A program made the position numbers and the translations under genes. The notes below the pieces were generated by a model. It was not told the DNA's origin, made no database searches, and saw only the letters and a program-made list of their open reading frames with translations. This document shows, piece by piece, positions 3 through 4,998 of a stretch of DNA of 5,179 nt. Position 1 is the stretch's first letter; each line of letters starts with the position of its first letter. Source of the DNA: Nitrospirales bacterium (lineage in GTDB: Bacteria; Nitrospirota; Nitrospiria; Nitrospirales; UBA8639); contig BQIY01000217.1 of NCBI GenBank assembly GCA_021604265.1, positions 1 through 5,179 on the forward strand, read 5' to 3'.

Positions 3-761
3 GCGCTTATACAAGCAGTGGGCTACCTAAAATTCACAGCTGAACCTTATGAGCGTATATTTCTAAGGGGGCAGAGCAAGCTCTACGATGCGCTCGGTCC
101 TACGCTGTATCGTGGAATTTCAACCGATGCGGCTCAGGGCAGGCGTCACAAAGCTCTGAAGTCTGTTTTAAAAATATTCCAAAATAGTTGTTCTATTTTC
201 GACGCGTTTCCGGAATATGCTCATGAAGCTCTGCTACAGCACTATGGAATAAAGACCACTTGGATTGATGTAGTAGATAATATTTGGATTGCCTTGTGGT
301 TTTCGGTTTATAAGGCGGTATCAGCGGGGAGAAGCAATGAGTTTTTGCATTTTGATCTCAGAATTGCTTCGGATGATGACGAGTTTGGTTACGTTTTGCT
401 TCTCGCATCAAAGGATGACCGTAGGTCAAAAACAAGAAAAGGCATGATTTCGAGTAGCGACTCTGAGGTAATAGATCTTAGAATTGCCGCTCCTTCAGTA
501 TTCTTGCGTCCGCATGCACAGCACGGGCTCCTTTTTCGAGCAAGGGGGTCTCGCGGTCGGCGAATTTTGAACTATTCCGATTCTGTTCGCGGTATTATCA
601 GATACCGACTCAAGGATGCGATTGAGTGGATGGGGGCCGGCAACATGGTTGGCGTGCGCAGCCTATTCCCACCGCCATATTATGACCCGGGATATCAGTT
701 GCTATTATCAGCACCTCATACGGATTACTCGATTGGTACAATTCATCATGTGGGTGCTTGA
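3..761 (+). CDS. FRG-domain protein, 5' end outside window and C-terminus probably frameshifted
   Basis: The frame is open to the left edge and reads ALIQAVGYLKF into the GTG at 18, which has no ribosome binding site, so the true start is probably upstream. Counting from that GTG, FRG-family hallmarks appear in order: FLRGQ at residues 15-19, LYR at 30-32, LQHYG at 73-77, a WID...IALWF block at 82-95 (family pattern LLDWT..p..ALyFA), and RPHAQHGLLFR at 164-174. FRG domains are common in accessory and phage-defence neighbourhoods, and their biochemical activity is not settled enough to state a reaction here. No signal peptide or membrane helix is visible, so the protein is probably cytoplasmic. 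The stop at 759-761 looks premature: protein-like sequence continues in the other two frames to about 913. Family assignment is firm; function is unknown. Confidence 0.82.
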   Translation, partial: ALIQAVGYLKFTAEPYERIFLRGQSKLYDALGPTLYRGISTDAAQGRRHKALKSVLKIFQNSCSIFDAFPEYAHEALLQHYGIKTTWIDVVDNIWIALWFSVYKAVSAGRSNEFLHFDLRIASDDDEFGYVLLLASKDDRRSKTRKGMISSSDSEVIDLRIAAPSVFLRPHAQHGLLFRARGSRGRRILNYSDSVRGIIRYRLKDAIEWMGAGNMVGVRSLFPPPYYDPGYQLLLSAPHTDYSIGTIHHVGA

Positions 762-913: not shown

Positions 914-1136
914 AGCGGCGATCTGCCTCTATCGGCGGGTGGGCTGAGTGGACATCCCATGCAGGCTCGCCAAACGGTCCCGCTAGGGTATCGCTCGGGT
1001 AGCAAATGGCCTGTGCTTGAACGTTTTGGCGCGAGAGGTGTCGATACAACGTGCGAAGCATGAAGCTCAACGATACCAATGGTCTATAGGGCGAATTGGG
1101 TAGGTGTGAGGCGCCTTGATTAGATCATCAGGAAGA
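914..1136. other. Intergenic stretch, GC-rich in its first part, no supported gene
   Basis: Up to about 1020 this stretch is visibly richer in GC than the FRG gene before it. The only longer open frames run on the minus strand (861-1079 and 787-1005). Both are proline- and arginine-rich, match no family I recognise, and the first needs a TTG start without a ribosome binding site. From about 1080 the sequence becomes AT-richer up to the tRNA fragment. The bases before 1136 do not form the 5' half of a tRNA. I see no promoter, terminator or repeat that I would defend. Confidence 0.5.
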
Positions 1137-1181
1137 ATCATAATCCGCGTGTCGGGGGTTCAAGTCCCTCTCCCGCTACCA
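1137..1181 (+). repeat. tRNA-Met(CAU) 3' fragment, internal att site
   Basis: This is the 3' half of an elongator tRNA-Met gene. It starts in the anticodon loop (ATCATAA, anticodon CAT at 1139-1141), followed by the 3' anticodon stem TCCGC. The T-arm pairs GGGGG with CCCTC around the loop TTCAAGT, and the 3' acceptor strand TCCCGCT ends in ACCA. The D-arm and 5' acceptor strand are absent upstream, so this is not a functional tRNA. A T-run follows immediately, as in a tRNA terminator. Positions 1137-1179 match 4890-4932 with a single difference (C at 1145, T at 4898). This extent, anticodon loop to 3' end, is the usual core left by tyrosine integrases that target tRNA genes. Confidence 0.88.
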
Positions 1182-1276
1182 TTTTTCCTGAATTTTTGTA
1201 TGCGATACGGCGCGGTCAAATGATTTTGACGATAGCCATCAACCTCTCAAGTATAGACGATGGCTGATTATACGCC

Positions 1277-1669
1277 TTGAAACCCCTTGTATCGGTGGTT
1301 CGGTTCTGCATTTCGACACCCAAATACGACAAGATCGCAAAGTTGTTTTTCGGCATTGCGCGGGCCAGGAATCATCCCTCTCGAGGGCACCTTTTGGGGT
1401 ATCAGTCCAATATTCCAAAAAAGCGGCGGCGAATTCTTCTTAGCGATTTCCTCCGACTCTATATGTATGTCACCTCAATCCGTATTGGAATGCCGTTGAG
1501 TGCAAGTGCGTGAACGAAACAACACGTGCATACTCTTCTGCTCGCTCAACTGACTGCGGCATTAGACGGTAACGGATTTCCACTCTTTTTGGATATCCAC
1601 GGTCACTTTTGCCGGTTCGCACCAGACACCACTCAAAGCGGCGCCAAGCATCTTCGACTCAGATGCTAG
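1277..1669 (+). pseudogene. Decayed gene with M14 zinc-carboxypeptidase-like fragments
   Basis: No frame is intact, but short plus-strand pieces recall cytosolic-type M14 carboxypeptidases in the right order and at roughly the right spacing. FFGIARARNHPS (HPS codons 1373-1381) resembles the ARxHPGE zinc motif. ILLSDFLRLYMYV follows in the same frame. LYVCHLNPYW from 1459 resembles the LNPDG segment. NETTRAYSS near 1511-1537 resembles the N-LNR-Y/W segment. FPLFLDIHGHF at 1577-1609 resembles the DxHGH third-ligand motif. Moving between them requires several frameshifts, and the G and E of HPGE are lost. Decayed-looking plus-strand pieces continue to about 1900, for example REFAIECTSPV near 1796-1828. 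The LDIHGH motif is the strongest piece; the rest could be partly fortuitous. Any product would be non-functional. Confidence 0.42.
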
Positions 1670-1930
1670 CCGACGAGCATACTCCATCCTCGCCCAAGCA
1701 AGAGTCTCTCAAGACCATCGGCGACCGGTCCCGTTTGCGCTTCATGAGCCTATGATAAGATGAGCGGGTGTGCCGAGTCAGGCATGATCCTCGGGAGTTT
1801 GCGATTGAATGCACAAGCCCGGTTTCGTCTACTTTGCTCACTTGCTACGATACATCTCCGTTGGGCGTTTCAGTCACCATAGCCACCAAAGGTCGCGTCT
1901 CCTGAGGTTTTGCTTGGCCATGATTCGGTA
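1670..1930. other. Degenerate sequence upstream of the operon
   Basis: No intact gene is present. Plus-strand open pieces of about 30-50 codons occur in two frames, ending at 1758-1760 and 1902-1904. They may be the continuation of the decayed gene before them, joined by another frameshift near 1757. The minus-strand open frames here are low-complexity, without recognisable motifs or ribosome binding sites. Confidence 0.35.
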
Positions 1931-1934
1931 CAAT
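1929..1934 (+). promoter_or_regulatory. Candidate -10 element of the operon promoter
   Basis: TACAAT lies 37 bases upstream of the first operon ATG and resembles a sigma-70 -10 hexamer. The bases upstream give only a weak -35 (TTTTGC or TTGCTT) at shorter than ideal spacing. An AT-rich tract with eight T residues follows at 1942-1949. This is the only promoter-like site I can point to before the operon. Confidence 0.25.
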
Positions 1935-1959
1935 TTGCCAATTTTTTTTGGGCTCGAAT

Positions 1960-1964
1960 AGGAG
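1960..1964 (+). promoter_or_regulatory. Shine-Dalgarno AGGAG for the first operon gene
   Basis: AGGAG sits seven bases before the ATG at 1972. This decides the start of the membrane-protein gene against the in-frame TTG at 1948, which lies upstream of the site itself, and against the in-frame ATG at 1981. Confidence 0.85.
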
Positions 1965-1971
1965 TTCTCGA

Positions 1972-2808
1972 ATGAATGGGATGAGCCGTTTCTTATACCT
2001 TCTCGTTGGTGCCCTCGTTTTCGTGTTTAGCGGATGGTTGACTGTAGTCTCTGTGATTGCGCTGTCCGAAAATGCCACTCATCAAGTTTTGGGCATACCT
2101 ACTAGTATTTGGATTGGCACTCTCGGATCGATAAGTGCATCAGGCATTTTTTTCACGATCTCTGAGGGGCTTCGGTGGCTTTTTGACTCAACCGTTAGTC
2201 GAAATTATCAGAGATTGCGTTTCTACGAAGAGACTGTTGGCATTAAAGATTTTTTCAGTCAAAAAGGTAGTGAAGATGCAAACAGTGACTATGGAAAGGC
2301 CATAGCCTCTGCAAAGCATCGTGTATGGGCATTTGGCATTTCAAATGGTGAATTTATCAGCGAGCACCTAGATAAATTGATTTCGAAGAAAAAACGTCAA
2401 CCTGCGCTCGATGTTTGCATTTCGTTTGTCGATCCAGAAACAAAAATTGTTCTGCTGGGACAGGGTGCCCGCCATTCGCTTTCACAAGTTCAACTCTACG
2501 ATCTTACTCGCGACGGAAGTCGAACCAGCGATGACTCATCTCGTGTATCTAACCGTGTTGCTGAAGCCATGTCCCACATTCAGGAAGCCGGCGTAACCCT
2601 TGACATTCGCCTGGTAAGTCCAGCAGGTTATCTATCGGCAATGGTGGTTGATGATACGATCTATATGTTTCCGTTCACTGCGGTATCCAAGGACAATACA
2701 CGTACTCCATACTTGAAGGTTTCAACAGGGTCCCAAATAGGCGGCGCAATGTTAGATTATCTTGAGGCGGTTCGCACACATCATACACTTTCTCGAGTTC
2801 CCGAATGA
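1972..2808 (+). CDS. Two-helix membrane protein with a C-terminal PLD-like, HKD-less domain
   Basis: This encodes 278 residues, first gene of the operon. Two hydrophobic segments, about residues 6-31 and 44-66, are followed by a soluble domain of about 200 residues, predicted cytoplasmic. The stretch from DYGKAIASAKHRVWAFGIS (about 106) to ISFVDPE (about 150-156), and later GVTLDIRLVSP, MVVDDTIYMFPF and TPYLKVSTGS (about 207-254), recall the strand-helix pattern of phospholipase D-like domains. No HxK(x4)D motif is present, so catalysis by that mechanism is unlikely and a binding or sensing role is more plausible. A charged linker with many Ser and Arg lies at about 180-195. The stop overlaps the next start (ATGA), indicating coupled translation. 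Membrane topology is clear; the fold assignment is tentative. An anchored effector or sensor for the two downstream enzymes is inference. Confidence 0.85.
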   Translation: MNGMSRFLYLLVGALVFVFSGWLTVVSVIALSENATHQVLGIPTSIWIGTLGSISASGIFFTISEGLRWLFDSTVSRNYQRLRFYEETVGIKDFFSQKGSEDANSDYGKAIASAKHRVWAFGISNGEFISEHLDKLISKKKRQPALDVCISFVDPETKIVLLGQGARHSLSQVQLYDLTRDGSRTSDDSSRVSNRVAEAMSHIQEAGVTLDIRLVSPAGYLSAMVVDDTIYMFPFTAVSKDNTRTPYLKVSTGSQIGGAMLDYLEAVRTHHTLSRVPE

Positions 2809-3356
2809 AGATCGCGTTCACCGGAGCGAGTGGGACTGGCAAGACCTCCGTCGCCCACTACCTTCTTTCAAAGAAATGTCGCGAATTATCGGAAATCCCA
2901 TTGGTAGGGGTTGATAGTCGAAATTTGCTCGACAATATTGGTCTGAAGAGGGCGGAGTTTATTGATCATAATCAGTATAAAGTGTTCCAGATAATGTATT
3001 TTTCACAGAAAATGCTCATTGAATCAGGGCGTGATGCATTTTTAACTGAGCGTTCTTTCGCTGATGGGTTAATTTATTGGAAAATGCATTGTGATGGGGT
3101 AGCGGATCCATCTGAAAAAGAAATAATTACGCGCCTTTGTCGTGAGCAAACCATGAAATATGACTATCATTTTCTCTTTCCTGTGGGGTTTATACCCTTA
3201 GAAGATGATGGATATCGCCATCAAAGCCCTGAATATCATAAGAGATTTGAGTTATATCTTGAGTCATTATTGAATGAATGGGGTATTAAATATATCGTTG
3301 TCCCCAATTCTGATGTTCCAACGCGTGCGAAATTCGTTTTGGATTGTCTGAAATGA
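2805..3356 (+). CDS. P-loop nucleotide-kinase-like ATPase (NadR/AAA_28 type)
   Basis: This encodes 183 residues. Walker A is GASGTGKT at 7-14 directly after a beta strand (KIAFT). FLTERSFADGLIYW at 79-92 matches the position of the D-x-R-(S/T)...D...Y segment found in NadR-like and deoxynucleotide-kinase-like P-loop proteins. YDYHFLFP at 119-126 followed by EDDGYRHQSPEYHKRFE at about 133-149 resembles the phosphate-binding lid, and IKYIVVP at 161-167 is the last core strand. Length and layout fit a single-domain kinase rather than an AAA+ machine or GTPase. The substrate cannot be read from the sequence; a nucleoside, nucleotide or small cofactor is likely. It starts inside the stop of the preceding gene (ATGA) with only a weak GAG upstream, so it probably depends on reinitiation. 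It is among the most AT-rich parts of the window. Confidence 0.85.
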   Translation: MKIAFTGASGTGKTSVAHYLLSKKCRELSEIPLVGVDSRNLLDNIGLKRAEFIDHNQYKVFQIMYFSQKMLIESGRDAFLTERSFADGLIYWKMHCDGVADPSEKEIITRLCREQTMKYDYHFLFPVGFIPLEDDGYRHQSPEYHKRFELYLESLLNEWGIKYIVVPNSDVPTRAKFVLDCLK

Positions 3357-4705
3357 CTAAGATCGTCGCTATATCCGCAGGTATGCTGCGCCCTAAGAAA
3401 GGAAATGAGGGATATCGAAAAGCACATCGTTATTTGAATTATGGCCTTCTTTCTTTAGCGTCATTATTTCCCGTACGTGTGCCTGTCTTGCACGGGAATT
3501 TCGTCGAACCCGAGCGATTTGTCGAACATAATCAAGAAGTAACGTCTGCCGATGTCATTCTTTTGTCTTTGCCCAGTTTCTATGCCGTGCCGTGGGCAAA
3601 GCGCTTTCTTATTGCACTAAAAAAAGTAAATCCGCGCGTTGATATCCATGTCGGCGGTCGGTGGGTGGTGGACTACAACGAAGCCTTGCTTAAAGCGGTA
3701 TTTCCGCGCGTCACCCGATACCACAGAGGTCTGGGTGAGGGAGCAATCGCGGACATTGCCTCCATTGTCAAAGGGCCGCGTGAGCGAGATCCAGAATACC
3801 TGCGGAAGGCGTGGCTTGACTATTCTCTGTTGCAGGATGCGACCGAATTTCAGCCAAGTGTCGAAGTTTCGCGCGGATGCGGATTGGGTTGCGCTTTTTG
3901 TGAAGAATCCGCGCTACCCCTTCAGCCATTGCGCGACCCCATTGACCTGTTTGATCAAATAGAAAGCATACGAAAATTTTACCCGGCAGATAGTCGGTTC
4001 TATTTTGAAAGTTCGTTTTTCGCACCAAGTCAGGCATGGACTGCGCTATTTGAAAGAGAATATCGCGAGCGTCAATGTGATTTTCAGTGGCGCACAGAGT
4101 CGCGCGTAGACGTATTGGACAAAGACAAGATTGAGGCTCTGGCTTCCGCTGGTCTGCGGGTGATCGATCTTGGCTTGGAGTCAGGGTCTCCGGAACAATT
4201 GATAAATATGGGTAAGACACGCAATCCGGACAGATACCTACTAAAAGCTAGTGAGCTCTTAAATGCCTGCCACTCTCACGGAGTCAAAGCAAAAGTCAAT
4301 ATTCTTCTGTATCCCGGGGAGACTGCGCGTTCCGTTCAGGAGACATATCAATTCTTGGATGAGCATGAAGGCCTTTTTTTCGGCCTCTCCACTTACCCGG
4401 TGGTGGTCTATGGCGAAGGTATTCGCCGAAGGCACTTTGAAGCGTTGTATCGCGCGCAAGGCGCTACTGGTTTGGTTAGGACCGACACTGTTGGAGTTTG
4501 GGATGTCCATTTGTCCGAGACGATCAGTGCGGAGGAAGCAAAAAAGATCGCAATAGCCATTTCACAGCGATTCATGTCTATGAACAGCTATTTTTATCTC
4601 AAAGCATTTTCATATTTTCGCTCAAGTTATGGTTGGCAGGAATTCGTGCGGGATGTCTCAGCCTTACCCGATAGTAAACTCGCTTTCTCTAGAGTTATGC
4701 GCTAG
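3353..4705 (+). CDS. Radical SAM enzyme with N-terminal cobalamin-binding-like domain
   Basis: This encodes 450 residues. The N-terminal part (about 1-140) has the Rossmann-like pattern of B12-binding domains in radical SAM proteins: ADVILLSLPS at 66-75, VDIHVGGRW at 96-104, and RGLGEGA at 125-131 in place of the usual RGEGE. The cobalamin-ligating DxHxxG is not seen, as in many such proteins. The radical SAM core begins with SRGCGLGCAFCEE, giving C176, C180 and C183 for the [4Fe-4S] cluster. It continues with the WRTESRVD segment (246-253) and GLESGSP (274-280), which lie where SAM-binding motifs are expected, and with KVNILLYPGET (314-324). The start at 3353 is set by the ATGA overlap; no Shine-Dalgarno is visible, so translation is coupled. 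Substrate unknown. It is not a viperin: the length, N-terminal domain and cysteine context differ. Confidence 0.92.
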   Translation: MTKIVAISAGMLRPKKGNEGYRKAHRYLNYGLLSLASLFPVRVPVLHGNFVEPERFVEHNQEVTSADVILLSLPSFYAVPWAKRFLIALKKVNPRVDIHVGGRWVVDYNEALLKAVFPRVTRYHRGLGEGAIADIASIVKGPRERDPEYLRKAWLDYSLLQDATEFQPSVEVSRGCGLGCAFCEESALPLQPLRDPIDLFDQIESIRKFYPADSRFYFESSFFAPSQAWTALFEREYRERQCDFQWRTESRVDVLDKDKIEALASAGLRVIDLGLESGSPEQLINMGKTRNPDRYLLKASELLNACHSHGVKAKVNILLYPGETARSVQETYQFLDEHEGLFFGLSTYPVVVYGEGIRRRHFEALYRAQGATGLVRTDTVGVWDVHLSETISAEEAKKIAIAISQRFMSMNSYFYLKAFSYFRSSYGWQEFVRDVSALPDSKLAFSRVMR

Positions 4706-4896
4706 CAACAATTGCGCGAAATCGATATCCGGAATATTGGGTTTCATTTGGTTTGCCGGAGCATTGTGTTTGCGAATTCCGACTCGCGAAAGAGCGACAC
4801 GTTCTGCCATGCGCTAGGATTAAGATTCGCGATCAGCTACGTGAGGAATTGAGCGCTGCTGAGGTGTTATTCATGGAGAGCAAGGACGCATCATAA
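4693..4896 (+). other. Open frame of 67 codons after the operon, possibly a truncated gene end
   Basis: In the frame shifted relative to the radical SAM gene, the sequence stays open from just after a TAG at 4690-4692 to a TAA at 4894-4896. It reads RNRYPEYWVSFGLPEH and then CEFRLAKERHVLPCARIK, and ends REELSAAEVLFMESKDAS, which looks protein-like. There is no ATG or GTG near its beginning. The first TTG (4753) has no ribosome binding site, so this looks like a gene tail without its head rather than a small gene. Its stop codon is supplied by the tRNA-Met fragment. It could instead be a chance open frame or the frameshifted end of the preceding gene. No terminator hairpin for the operon is seen here. 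Confidence 0.35.
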
Positions 4897-4932
4897 TTCG
4901 CGTGTCGGGGGTTCAAGTCCCTCTCCCGCTAC
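4890..4932 (+). repeat. tRNA-Met(CAU) 3' fragment, degenerate right-end att site
   Basis: This is the second copy of the tRNA-Met 3' half, 42 of 43 positions identical to 1137-1179. The single change (T at 4898) is in the 3' anticodon stem, and the terminal CCA has become CTA. Downstream, TTCCTGAA at 4939-4946 also occurs at 1185-1192, so the similarity reaches beyond the tRNA. No 5' half precedes it. Its position against the GC-rich flank fits the displaced original tRNA end, free of selection since the first integration. Confidence 0.88.
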
Positions 4933-4998
4933 TACTTCTTCCTGAAAAATTGTGATGTACGCGGCGTCCAGGCTGATCACGGTGTGGCCGCGTTCCAT

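What the first reader, a model, noticed from the sequence alone, without database searches (positions are those of the whole stretch)
1972..4705. Unnamed three-gene system: membrane PLD-like protein, nucleotide-kinase-like P-loop protein and B12-type radical SAM enzyme
Seen: three intact genes joined by two ATGA overlaps, inside an att-bounded cassette. Known: defence-associated radical SAM enzymes (prokaryotic viperins) are often encoded beside nucleotide kinases, and several defence systems pair a nucleotide-type signal with a two-helix membrane effector. Inferred: the kinase and radical SAM enzyme produce or modify a small molecule that the membrane protein senses. The trio does not match a system I can name. 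Alternatives are nucleotide or cofactor modification, or a small natural-product pathway.
Basis: partly seen in the sequence, partly recalled or inferred. Interest (0 to 1): 0.78.

Follow-up and report, generated by a model that had tools for sequence, protein, structure and literature searches.

The report
Radical-SAM, kinase, membrane-sensor island operon
A rare three-gene bacterial operon on a small tRNA-inserted island combines a radical-chemistry enzyme, a nucleotide-kinase-like protein and a membrane protein with a dead phospholipase fold, and the company its relatives keep suggests a virus-defence system that makes an altered nucleotide and senses it at the membrane.

Summary
The trio is real and conserved. 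A (1972-2808), B (2805-3356) and C (3353-4705) are intact and joined by two ATGA overlaps. They lie between two partial copies of a tRNA-Met(cat) 3' half. A is a membrane protein whose soluble part folds like phospholipase D but lacks the catalytic HKD motif (18 sequences, one cut short before that region). B is an AAA_28 P-loop protein. C has CxxxCxxC and the fold of B12-type radical SAM enzymes (AprD4, MgmA, OxsB). Of 17 other A clusters, 14 share a longest-contig length with a C relative. B is optional: none between A and C in Pelagimonas. Wider relatives of C (36-41% identity) sit beside a dTMP kinase (22 of 38 loci, against 0 of 29 control radical-SAM loci), often with a SAMHD1-like HD protein or a large TPR protein, or inside type I restriction operons. 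The nearest catalogued kind is PADLOC's candidate PDC-M51 (radical SAM plus dTMP-kinase-like protein); the window proteins match its models poorly or not at all. Best reading: a nucleotide-chemistry defence module with a membrane pseudo-phospholipase sensor/effector. Anti-phage activity, the product and sensing are inferred. New variant of a known (candidate) kind.

The parts
1130..1184 (+). att-like direct repeat copy 1 (anticodon loop to CCA of tRNA-Met; 5' half missing)
1185..1971 (+). leader between repeat and gene A; no listed ORF of 80 aa or more that is not gene A, no Rfam match
1972..2808 (+). gene A: N-terminal membrane hairpin (about residues 5-31 and 44-66), then a degenerate phospholipase-D-fold domain (residues about 86-278) without HKD
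2805..3356 (+). gene B: P-loop AAA_28 nucleotide-kinase-like protein, Walker A GASGTGKTS, conserved ERS motif
3353..4705 (+). gene C: radical SAM enzyme, C176xxxC180xxC183, with N-terminal B12-binding-like Rossmann domain
4883..4937 (+). att-like direct repeat copy 2 (91% identical to copy 1; 5' half of tRNA missing)

Best explanation
The three genes are the cargo of a small tRNA-Met-anchored island and form a two- to three-component defence module built on nucleotide chemistry. C, a cobalamin-fold radical SAM enzyme, alters a nucleotide or nucleoside. B, where present, phosphorylates the substrate or product. A sits in the membrane by an N-terminal hairpin and binds the product with its catalytically dead phospholipase-D-fold domain; binding makes A oligomerise and disturb the membrane, stopping the infected cell. 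Shown here: gene structure, folds, loss of HKD, conserved A-C linkage, island-like repeats, and the kinase/HD/restriction company of C's relatives. [quoted passage not shown]
Confidence: 0.45

Rival explanations
1. Direct-poison defence without signalling: C and B make a chain-terminating or polymerase-blocking nucleotide (as viperins and OxsB do), and A is an accessory that senses infection or protects or exports, not the receiver of the product.
For: OxsB/OxsA and viperin precedents (passages); dTMP kinase and SAMHD1-like HD partners in relatives point to the dNTP pool; B is optional.
Against: A is the partner most often found with C in its clade and its dead PLD fold with near-invariant residues looks like a binding site; no exporter-like gene among the ORFs between the repeats.
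Confidence: 0.22
2. Small natural-product or cofactor pathway: C modifies a metabolite, B phosphorylates it, A anchors or scaffolds the pathway at the membrane.
For: C's nearest curated families are mostly biosynthetic (PhpK, ApyD, HpnJ, BzaD) and its nearest folds AprD4, OxsB, CysS, TsrM.
Against: No further long ORF in the cassette; the Pfam matches among 10 L002 flank proteins (pyrimidine-dehydrogenase-like pair, subtilase, RTX repeats) do not look like a biosynthetic cluster, five have no match; relatives lie with restriction and kinase/HD genes.
Confidence: 0.15
3. Membrane or nucleic-acid modification: C modifies a lipid or a nucleic acid and A is a PLD-like lipid or DNA binding protein.
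For: A's top Foldseek match is phosphatidylserine synthase, and TrmBL2 (DNA-binding) also matches; HpnJ and ladderane B12 radical SAM enzymes act on lipids; MiaB/RimO share C's fold.
Against: A lacks HKD in all sequences that reach the region; the kinase is unexplained.
Confidence: 0.1

Closest known systems
PADLOC candidate PDC-M51 (PDC-M51A radical SAM + PDC-M51B kinase; a 'phage defence candidate', no paper on it found)
   Same: Two adjacent genes for a B12-type radical SAM enzyme and a P-loop nucleotide kinase, overlapping by one base or more in the one high-scoring locus read (L062).
   Different: Window C matches PDC-M51A only at E 0.012 and window B does not match PDC-M51B; kinase family is AAA_28, not dTMP kinase; window adds membrane gene A; gene order differs (kinase before radical SAM).
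dTMP kinase / radical SAM / TPR or HD loci of Pseudomonas, Burkholderia, Rhizobium and others (annotated tmk, radical SAM protein, dgt; no system name found)
   Same: Radical SAM gene 36-41% identical to C, beside a nucleotide kinase gene, plus a third variable gene.
   Different: Kinase is a dTMP kinase, divergently transcribed; third gene is a 900-aa TPR protein or a SAMHD1-like HD protein, not A.
OxsB/OxsA (oxetanocin A) and AlsB
   Different: C lacks OxsB's N-terminal extension (450 against about 730 residues); window has no HD gene; sequence link weak (E 0.0086).
Prokaryotic viperins
   Same: Radical SAM defence enzymes acting on nucleotides (passages); kinase partners are recalled, not read here. 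One C relative, L026, matches pVip weakly (1.4e-4).
   Different: Window C has no pVip match at E up to 1 and has a B12-like domain, which viperins lack (recalled).
Clover (CloA dGTPase + CloB nucleotide signal; PMC12265719, abstract and outline read)
   Same: Defence in which a small nucleotide controls an HD effector; precedent for the kinase/HD/radical SAM loci of relatives.
   Different: No nucleotidyltransferase here and no HD gene in the window.

Membership tests
PADLOC candidate PDC-M51 | radical SAM protein matching PDC-M51A | tested here: not met
   window C E 0.012; L062 2e-170; relatives L005, L014, L026, L058 8e-5 to 1e-10
PADLOC candidate PDC-M51 | kinase matching PDC-M51B | tested here: not met
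   no match of window B at E up to 1; tmk of L005 and L058 about 1e-11
Cobalamin-type (B12-domain) radical SAM enzymes | CxxxCxxC cluster motif | tested here: met
   C176, C180, C183 invariant in 61 aligned sequences
Cobalamin-type (B12-domain) radical SAM enzymes | N-terminal Rossmann domain of B12-binding type | tested here: met
   whole-length fold match to OxsB, TsrM, CysS; PF02310 E 2.3e-6 but below its cut-off
Cobalamin-type (B12-domain) radical SAM enzymes | binds cobalamin | not testable with these tools
   top fold match AprD4 is, as recalled, cobalamin-independent, so binding cannot be assumed
Prokaryotic viperins | match to viperin models | tested here: not met
   no pVip match of window C at E up to 1
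Phospholipase D superfamily enzymes | PLD fold | tested here: met
Phospholipase D superfamily enzymes | HxKxxxxD catalytic motif | tested here: not met
   absent in 18 of 18 sequences, 17 of which reach the region; by sequence position it reads Y220-x-S222-x4-D227
Nucleoside or nucleotide kinases | P-loop Walker A and kinase-type family match | tested here: met
   AAA_28 5.2e-16 above cut-off; PHROG thymidylate kinase 8.2e-14
Nucleoside or nucleotide kinases | phosphorylates a nucleoside or nucleotide | not testable with these tools
   no relative of known substrate found
tRNA-integrated genomic island | direct repeats of a tRNA 3' end flanking cargo | tested here: met
tRNA-integrated genomic island | own integrase | tested here: inconclusive
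   none among the long ORFs between the repeats; the window is only 5.2 kb
OxsB/OxsA-type nucleotide pathway | HD phosphohydrolase encoded beside the radical SAM gene | tested here: not met
   none among the four window proteins scanned; present in 11 of 38 relatives of C

The most novel reading that the evidence does not exclude
A new class of nucleotide-signal immunity in which a radical SAM enzyme, not a cyclase or nucleotidyltransferase, makes the second messenger, and the receiver is a membrane protein that has turned a dead phospholipase-D fold into a ligand sensor; related clades plug the same enzyme into HD dNTPases, TPR proteins or restriction enzymes.
Probability: 0.2. Interest if true: 0.9.

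Novelty: new variant of a known kind. Interest (0 to 1): 0.62.

Why it matters
If right, radical SAM chemistry would join cyclases and nucleotidyltransferases as a maker of immune nucleotides beyond viperin's chain terminators, and a phospholipase-D fold would be a new kind of receptor for them. It also ties a scattered family of radical SAM genes, for which I found no system name (beside dTMP kinases, SAMHD1-like HD proteins, TPR proteins and type I restriction enzymes), to one testable idea: a shared enzyme with exchangeable partners.

Tried and rejected
Filing the trio as PDC-M51 or as a viperin: rejected, models not met. A as an active phospholipase or nuclease: rejected, no HKD. Whether B and the kinases of relatives are one family: not supported (hhalign probability 6.5 for a dTMP kinase, 70 over only 20 columns for the Nostoc kinase). 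B elsewhere in the Pelagimonas genome: no match at E 0.01, but no positive control genome. Other copies of A: none in IMG/VR, plasmids or 369 genomes of L005's class; the empty genome answer had no positive control. PDC-M51A as a search handle: at E 1e-8 it matches in 133 of 398 genomes and in 6 of 14 control genomes, so it is not specific. Conserved RNA in the leader: none in Rfam, nothing shared with the Pelagimonas leader beyond 15 nt. Promoter and terminator scans were below shuffle expectation. Literature: no paper for 'PDC-M51', none for anti-phage + radical SAM + thymidylate kinase + HD domain, nothing fitting in the listings; only open-licence papers are held. One unresolved lead: PMC10250203 (passages) names a radical SAM gene at the edge of a Pseudomonas aeruginosa defence hotspot; whether it is of C's family was not tested.

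Limits of the counts: the A-B-C linkage outside L002 and L024 rests on equal longest-contig lengths among the listed hits (120 of 681 for C), not on reading contigs. One further A cluster (P0122, 2896 bases) equals in length a 42% C hit (P0033); I took this for chance and did not count it. The F1 and F3 profiles were built from the same loci in which they were counted; only the control set is independent of them. Control loci are the 29 next best PDC-M51A loci after L062, 2.6-4.2 kb each. Of the 53 loci, L041-L053 (short matches only) were left out, and L001 and L002 belong to the window's clade. L018, L036, L038 and L039 have C in broken or miscalled frames; they were counted as loci, not mended; of these only L018 has the kinase, L018 and L036 the HD gene.

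Full report
What is there. The window holds three intact, same-strand genes: A 1972-2808, B 2805-3356 and C 3353-4705. Stop and start overlap as ATGA at both joints. They lie between two copies of a 55-nt repeat, 1130-1184 and 4883-4937, 91% identical. ARAGORN sees no tRNA. The repeat's core occurs in 4 of 142 genomes of the class of L002's genome (Pelagimonas, an alphaproteobacterium), in each as the end of a tRNA-Met(cat) gene. Aligned to one of these, copy 1 is identical from the anticodon loop to the CCA end, copy 2 differs there at three places, and neither clearly resembles the 5' half. So both are partial att-like ends of an island at tRNA-Met, and the trio is the only evident cargo between them. 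The next gene outside the repeats, 3-761, is an FRG-domain protein (Pfam 35.5 bits against a cut-off of 25; PADLOC PDC-S15 2e-9).

Gene B. AAA_28 at 5.2e-16 (cut-off passed) and PHROG 'thymidylate kinase' at 8.2e-14; Walker A GASGTGKTS, and E82-R83-S84 in which R83 and S84 are invariant in 13 of 13. Its substrate is unknown.

Conservation of the trio. Of 17 non-query A clusters, 14 have a longest contig of exactly the length listed for a C relative of 48-75% identity; the other 3 sit on contigs of 1468, 1487 and 2896 bases. Of 12 non-query B clusters, 4 share a contig length with both A and such a C, 3 with C only, 1 with A only, 4 with neither (120 of 681 C hits were listed). The names given for Arenicella (NBRC116583_02530 for A, _02550 for C) leave room for one gene between. 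Read directly: Pelagimonas L002 has A then C, 105 nt apart, no B, and no B match elsewhere in that genome at E 0.01 (no positive control). Phycisphaerales L024 has an A-like gene (E 7.7e-20; hhalign 97.9%) 29 nt before C, although its C lies outside the A-linked clade. A and C evolve in step (15 pairs, r 0.79; 0 of 5000 permutations as high), as expected of genes passed on together. A and C are thus the core and B is usual but optional.

The wider family of C. One scan of 84,980 species genomes gave 53 loci, 40 of which (L001-L040) match C over much of its length. In 38 of them (L003-L040; 36-41% identity), a dTMP kinase gene lies within 1.5 kb in 22 and a SAMHD1-like HD gene in 11; in 29 control loci with other B12-type radical SAM genes both counts are 0. 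The kinase of L005 passes NCBI's dTMP-kinase cut-off (136.8 against 83.25); the HD protein of L029 finds HD phosphohydrolases including SAMHD1 (1e-19) in the PDB and stays below NCBI's dGTPase cut-off. A 900-aa TPR protein is present in 12 of 38. Four loci (L010, L014, L017, L040) lie in type I restriction operons; HsdR overlaps the radical SAM gene by 4 nt in two and ends 3 nt before it in one. Of 6 plasmids with a relative, 5 have tmk beside it (two are B. glumae plasmids with the same genes); on a Nostoc plasmid an AAA kinase and the radical SAM gene lie between genes matching DpdE, DrmMI and DruE models. Against this, some loci have metabolic neighbours (L007, L026, L035). In the tree the 15 A-linked sequences (query included) fall in one clade of 25 (support 0.953), apart from the restriction and tmk groups. 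So the kinase/HD evidence bears on the window through family resemblance, not through its own clade.

Flanks of the one intact relative with A. Around L002's pair, Pfam matches in 5 of 10 proteins scanned: an oxidoreductase and a dihydroorotate-dehydrogenase-like protein (together like a pyrimidine dehydrogenase), a subtilase and two RTX proteins; five have none. A protein 7 kb downstream matches PADLOC candidate PDC-S06 at 5e-179. This is one defence-candidate neighbour, not an island.

Nearest catalogued kind. PADLOC lists a candidate PDC-M51 of two proteins, a radical SAM protein and a kinase; PDC stands for 'phage defence candidate' (PMC11514479 passages). One high-scoring member, L062, shows the two genes overlapping, the second dTMP-kinase-like (2.4e-21, below cut-off). 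Window C matches PDC-M51A only at 0.012 and window B does not match PDC-M51B. I found no paper on PDC-M51. It is a cousin in design, not a family to file the trio under.

How it most likely works. OxsB, which shares C's fold, rearranges deoxyadenosine phosphates, preferring dATP, and depends on an HD phosphohydrolase, OxsA (PMC13331322 passages; PMC7074753 passages). C's relatives sit beside a dTMP kinase and a SAMHD1-like HD protein. Clover shows that a small nucleotide can control an HD effector in phage defence (PMC12265719, abstract and outline). By analogy C would make an altered nucleotide, B adjust its phosphates, and A, a membrane protein with a dead enzyme fold, receive it and act on the membrane. 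Direct poisoning of replication with A as helper is the main rival.

Rarity. A: 1 of 385 genomes of L002's class (its own genome) and 0 of 369 of L005's class. C-type at E 1e-60: 1 of 398 of the phylum (the centre genome). No match in plasmids for A, in phage records for C, or in the IMG/VR scans for either. This patchiness fits accessory defence cargo but does not prove it.

Noticed in passing
window 3-761: FRG-domain protein, open at the contig start, outside the repeats; PADLOC candidate PDC-S15.
   Followed up: partly
window 1185-1971: About 790 bases of leader inside the cassette before gene A with no listed ORF of 80 aa or more other than A's own upstream extension, and no Rfam match.
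   Followed up: partly
L010, L014, L017, L040: A radical SAM gene of C's family lies inside type I restriction operons, directly after HsdR in three; in L014 the operon is followed by an Abi_2 gene.
   Followed up: partly
L058 (Rhizobium plasmid): tmk, radical SAM and a gene annotated dGTP triphosphohydrolase (not found by the F3 profile), near a 7-cyano-7-deazaguanine synthase gene.
   Followed up: no
L060 9309-9866 (Nostoc plasmid): The kinase before the radical SAM gene matches part of PADLOC's dCTPase model (6e-12), which spans a longer protein.
   Followed up: no
L006 11484-13091, L038 8294-9916: SEC-C/DUF4145 proteins with Sel1 or TPR repeats next to C relatives in Methylophaga and Neptuniibacter.
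   Followed up: no
L005 6561-9263: About 900-aa partner whose first 560 or so residues have no Pfam match and which has no PDB match at E 0.01; the rest is TPR.
   Followed up: partly
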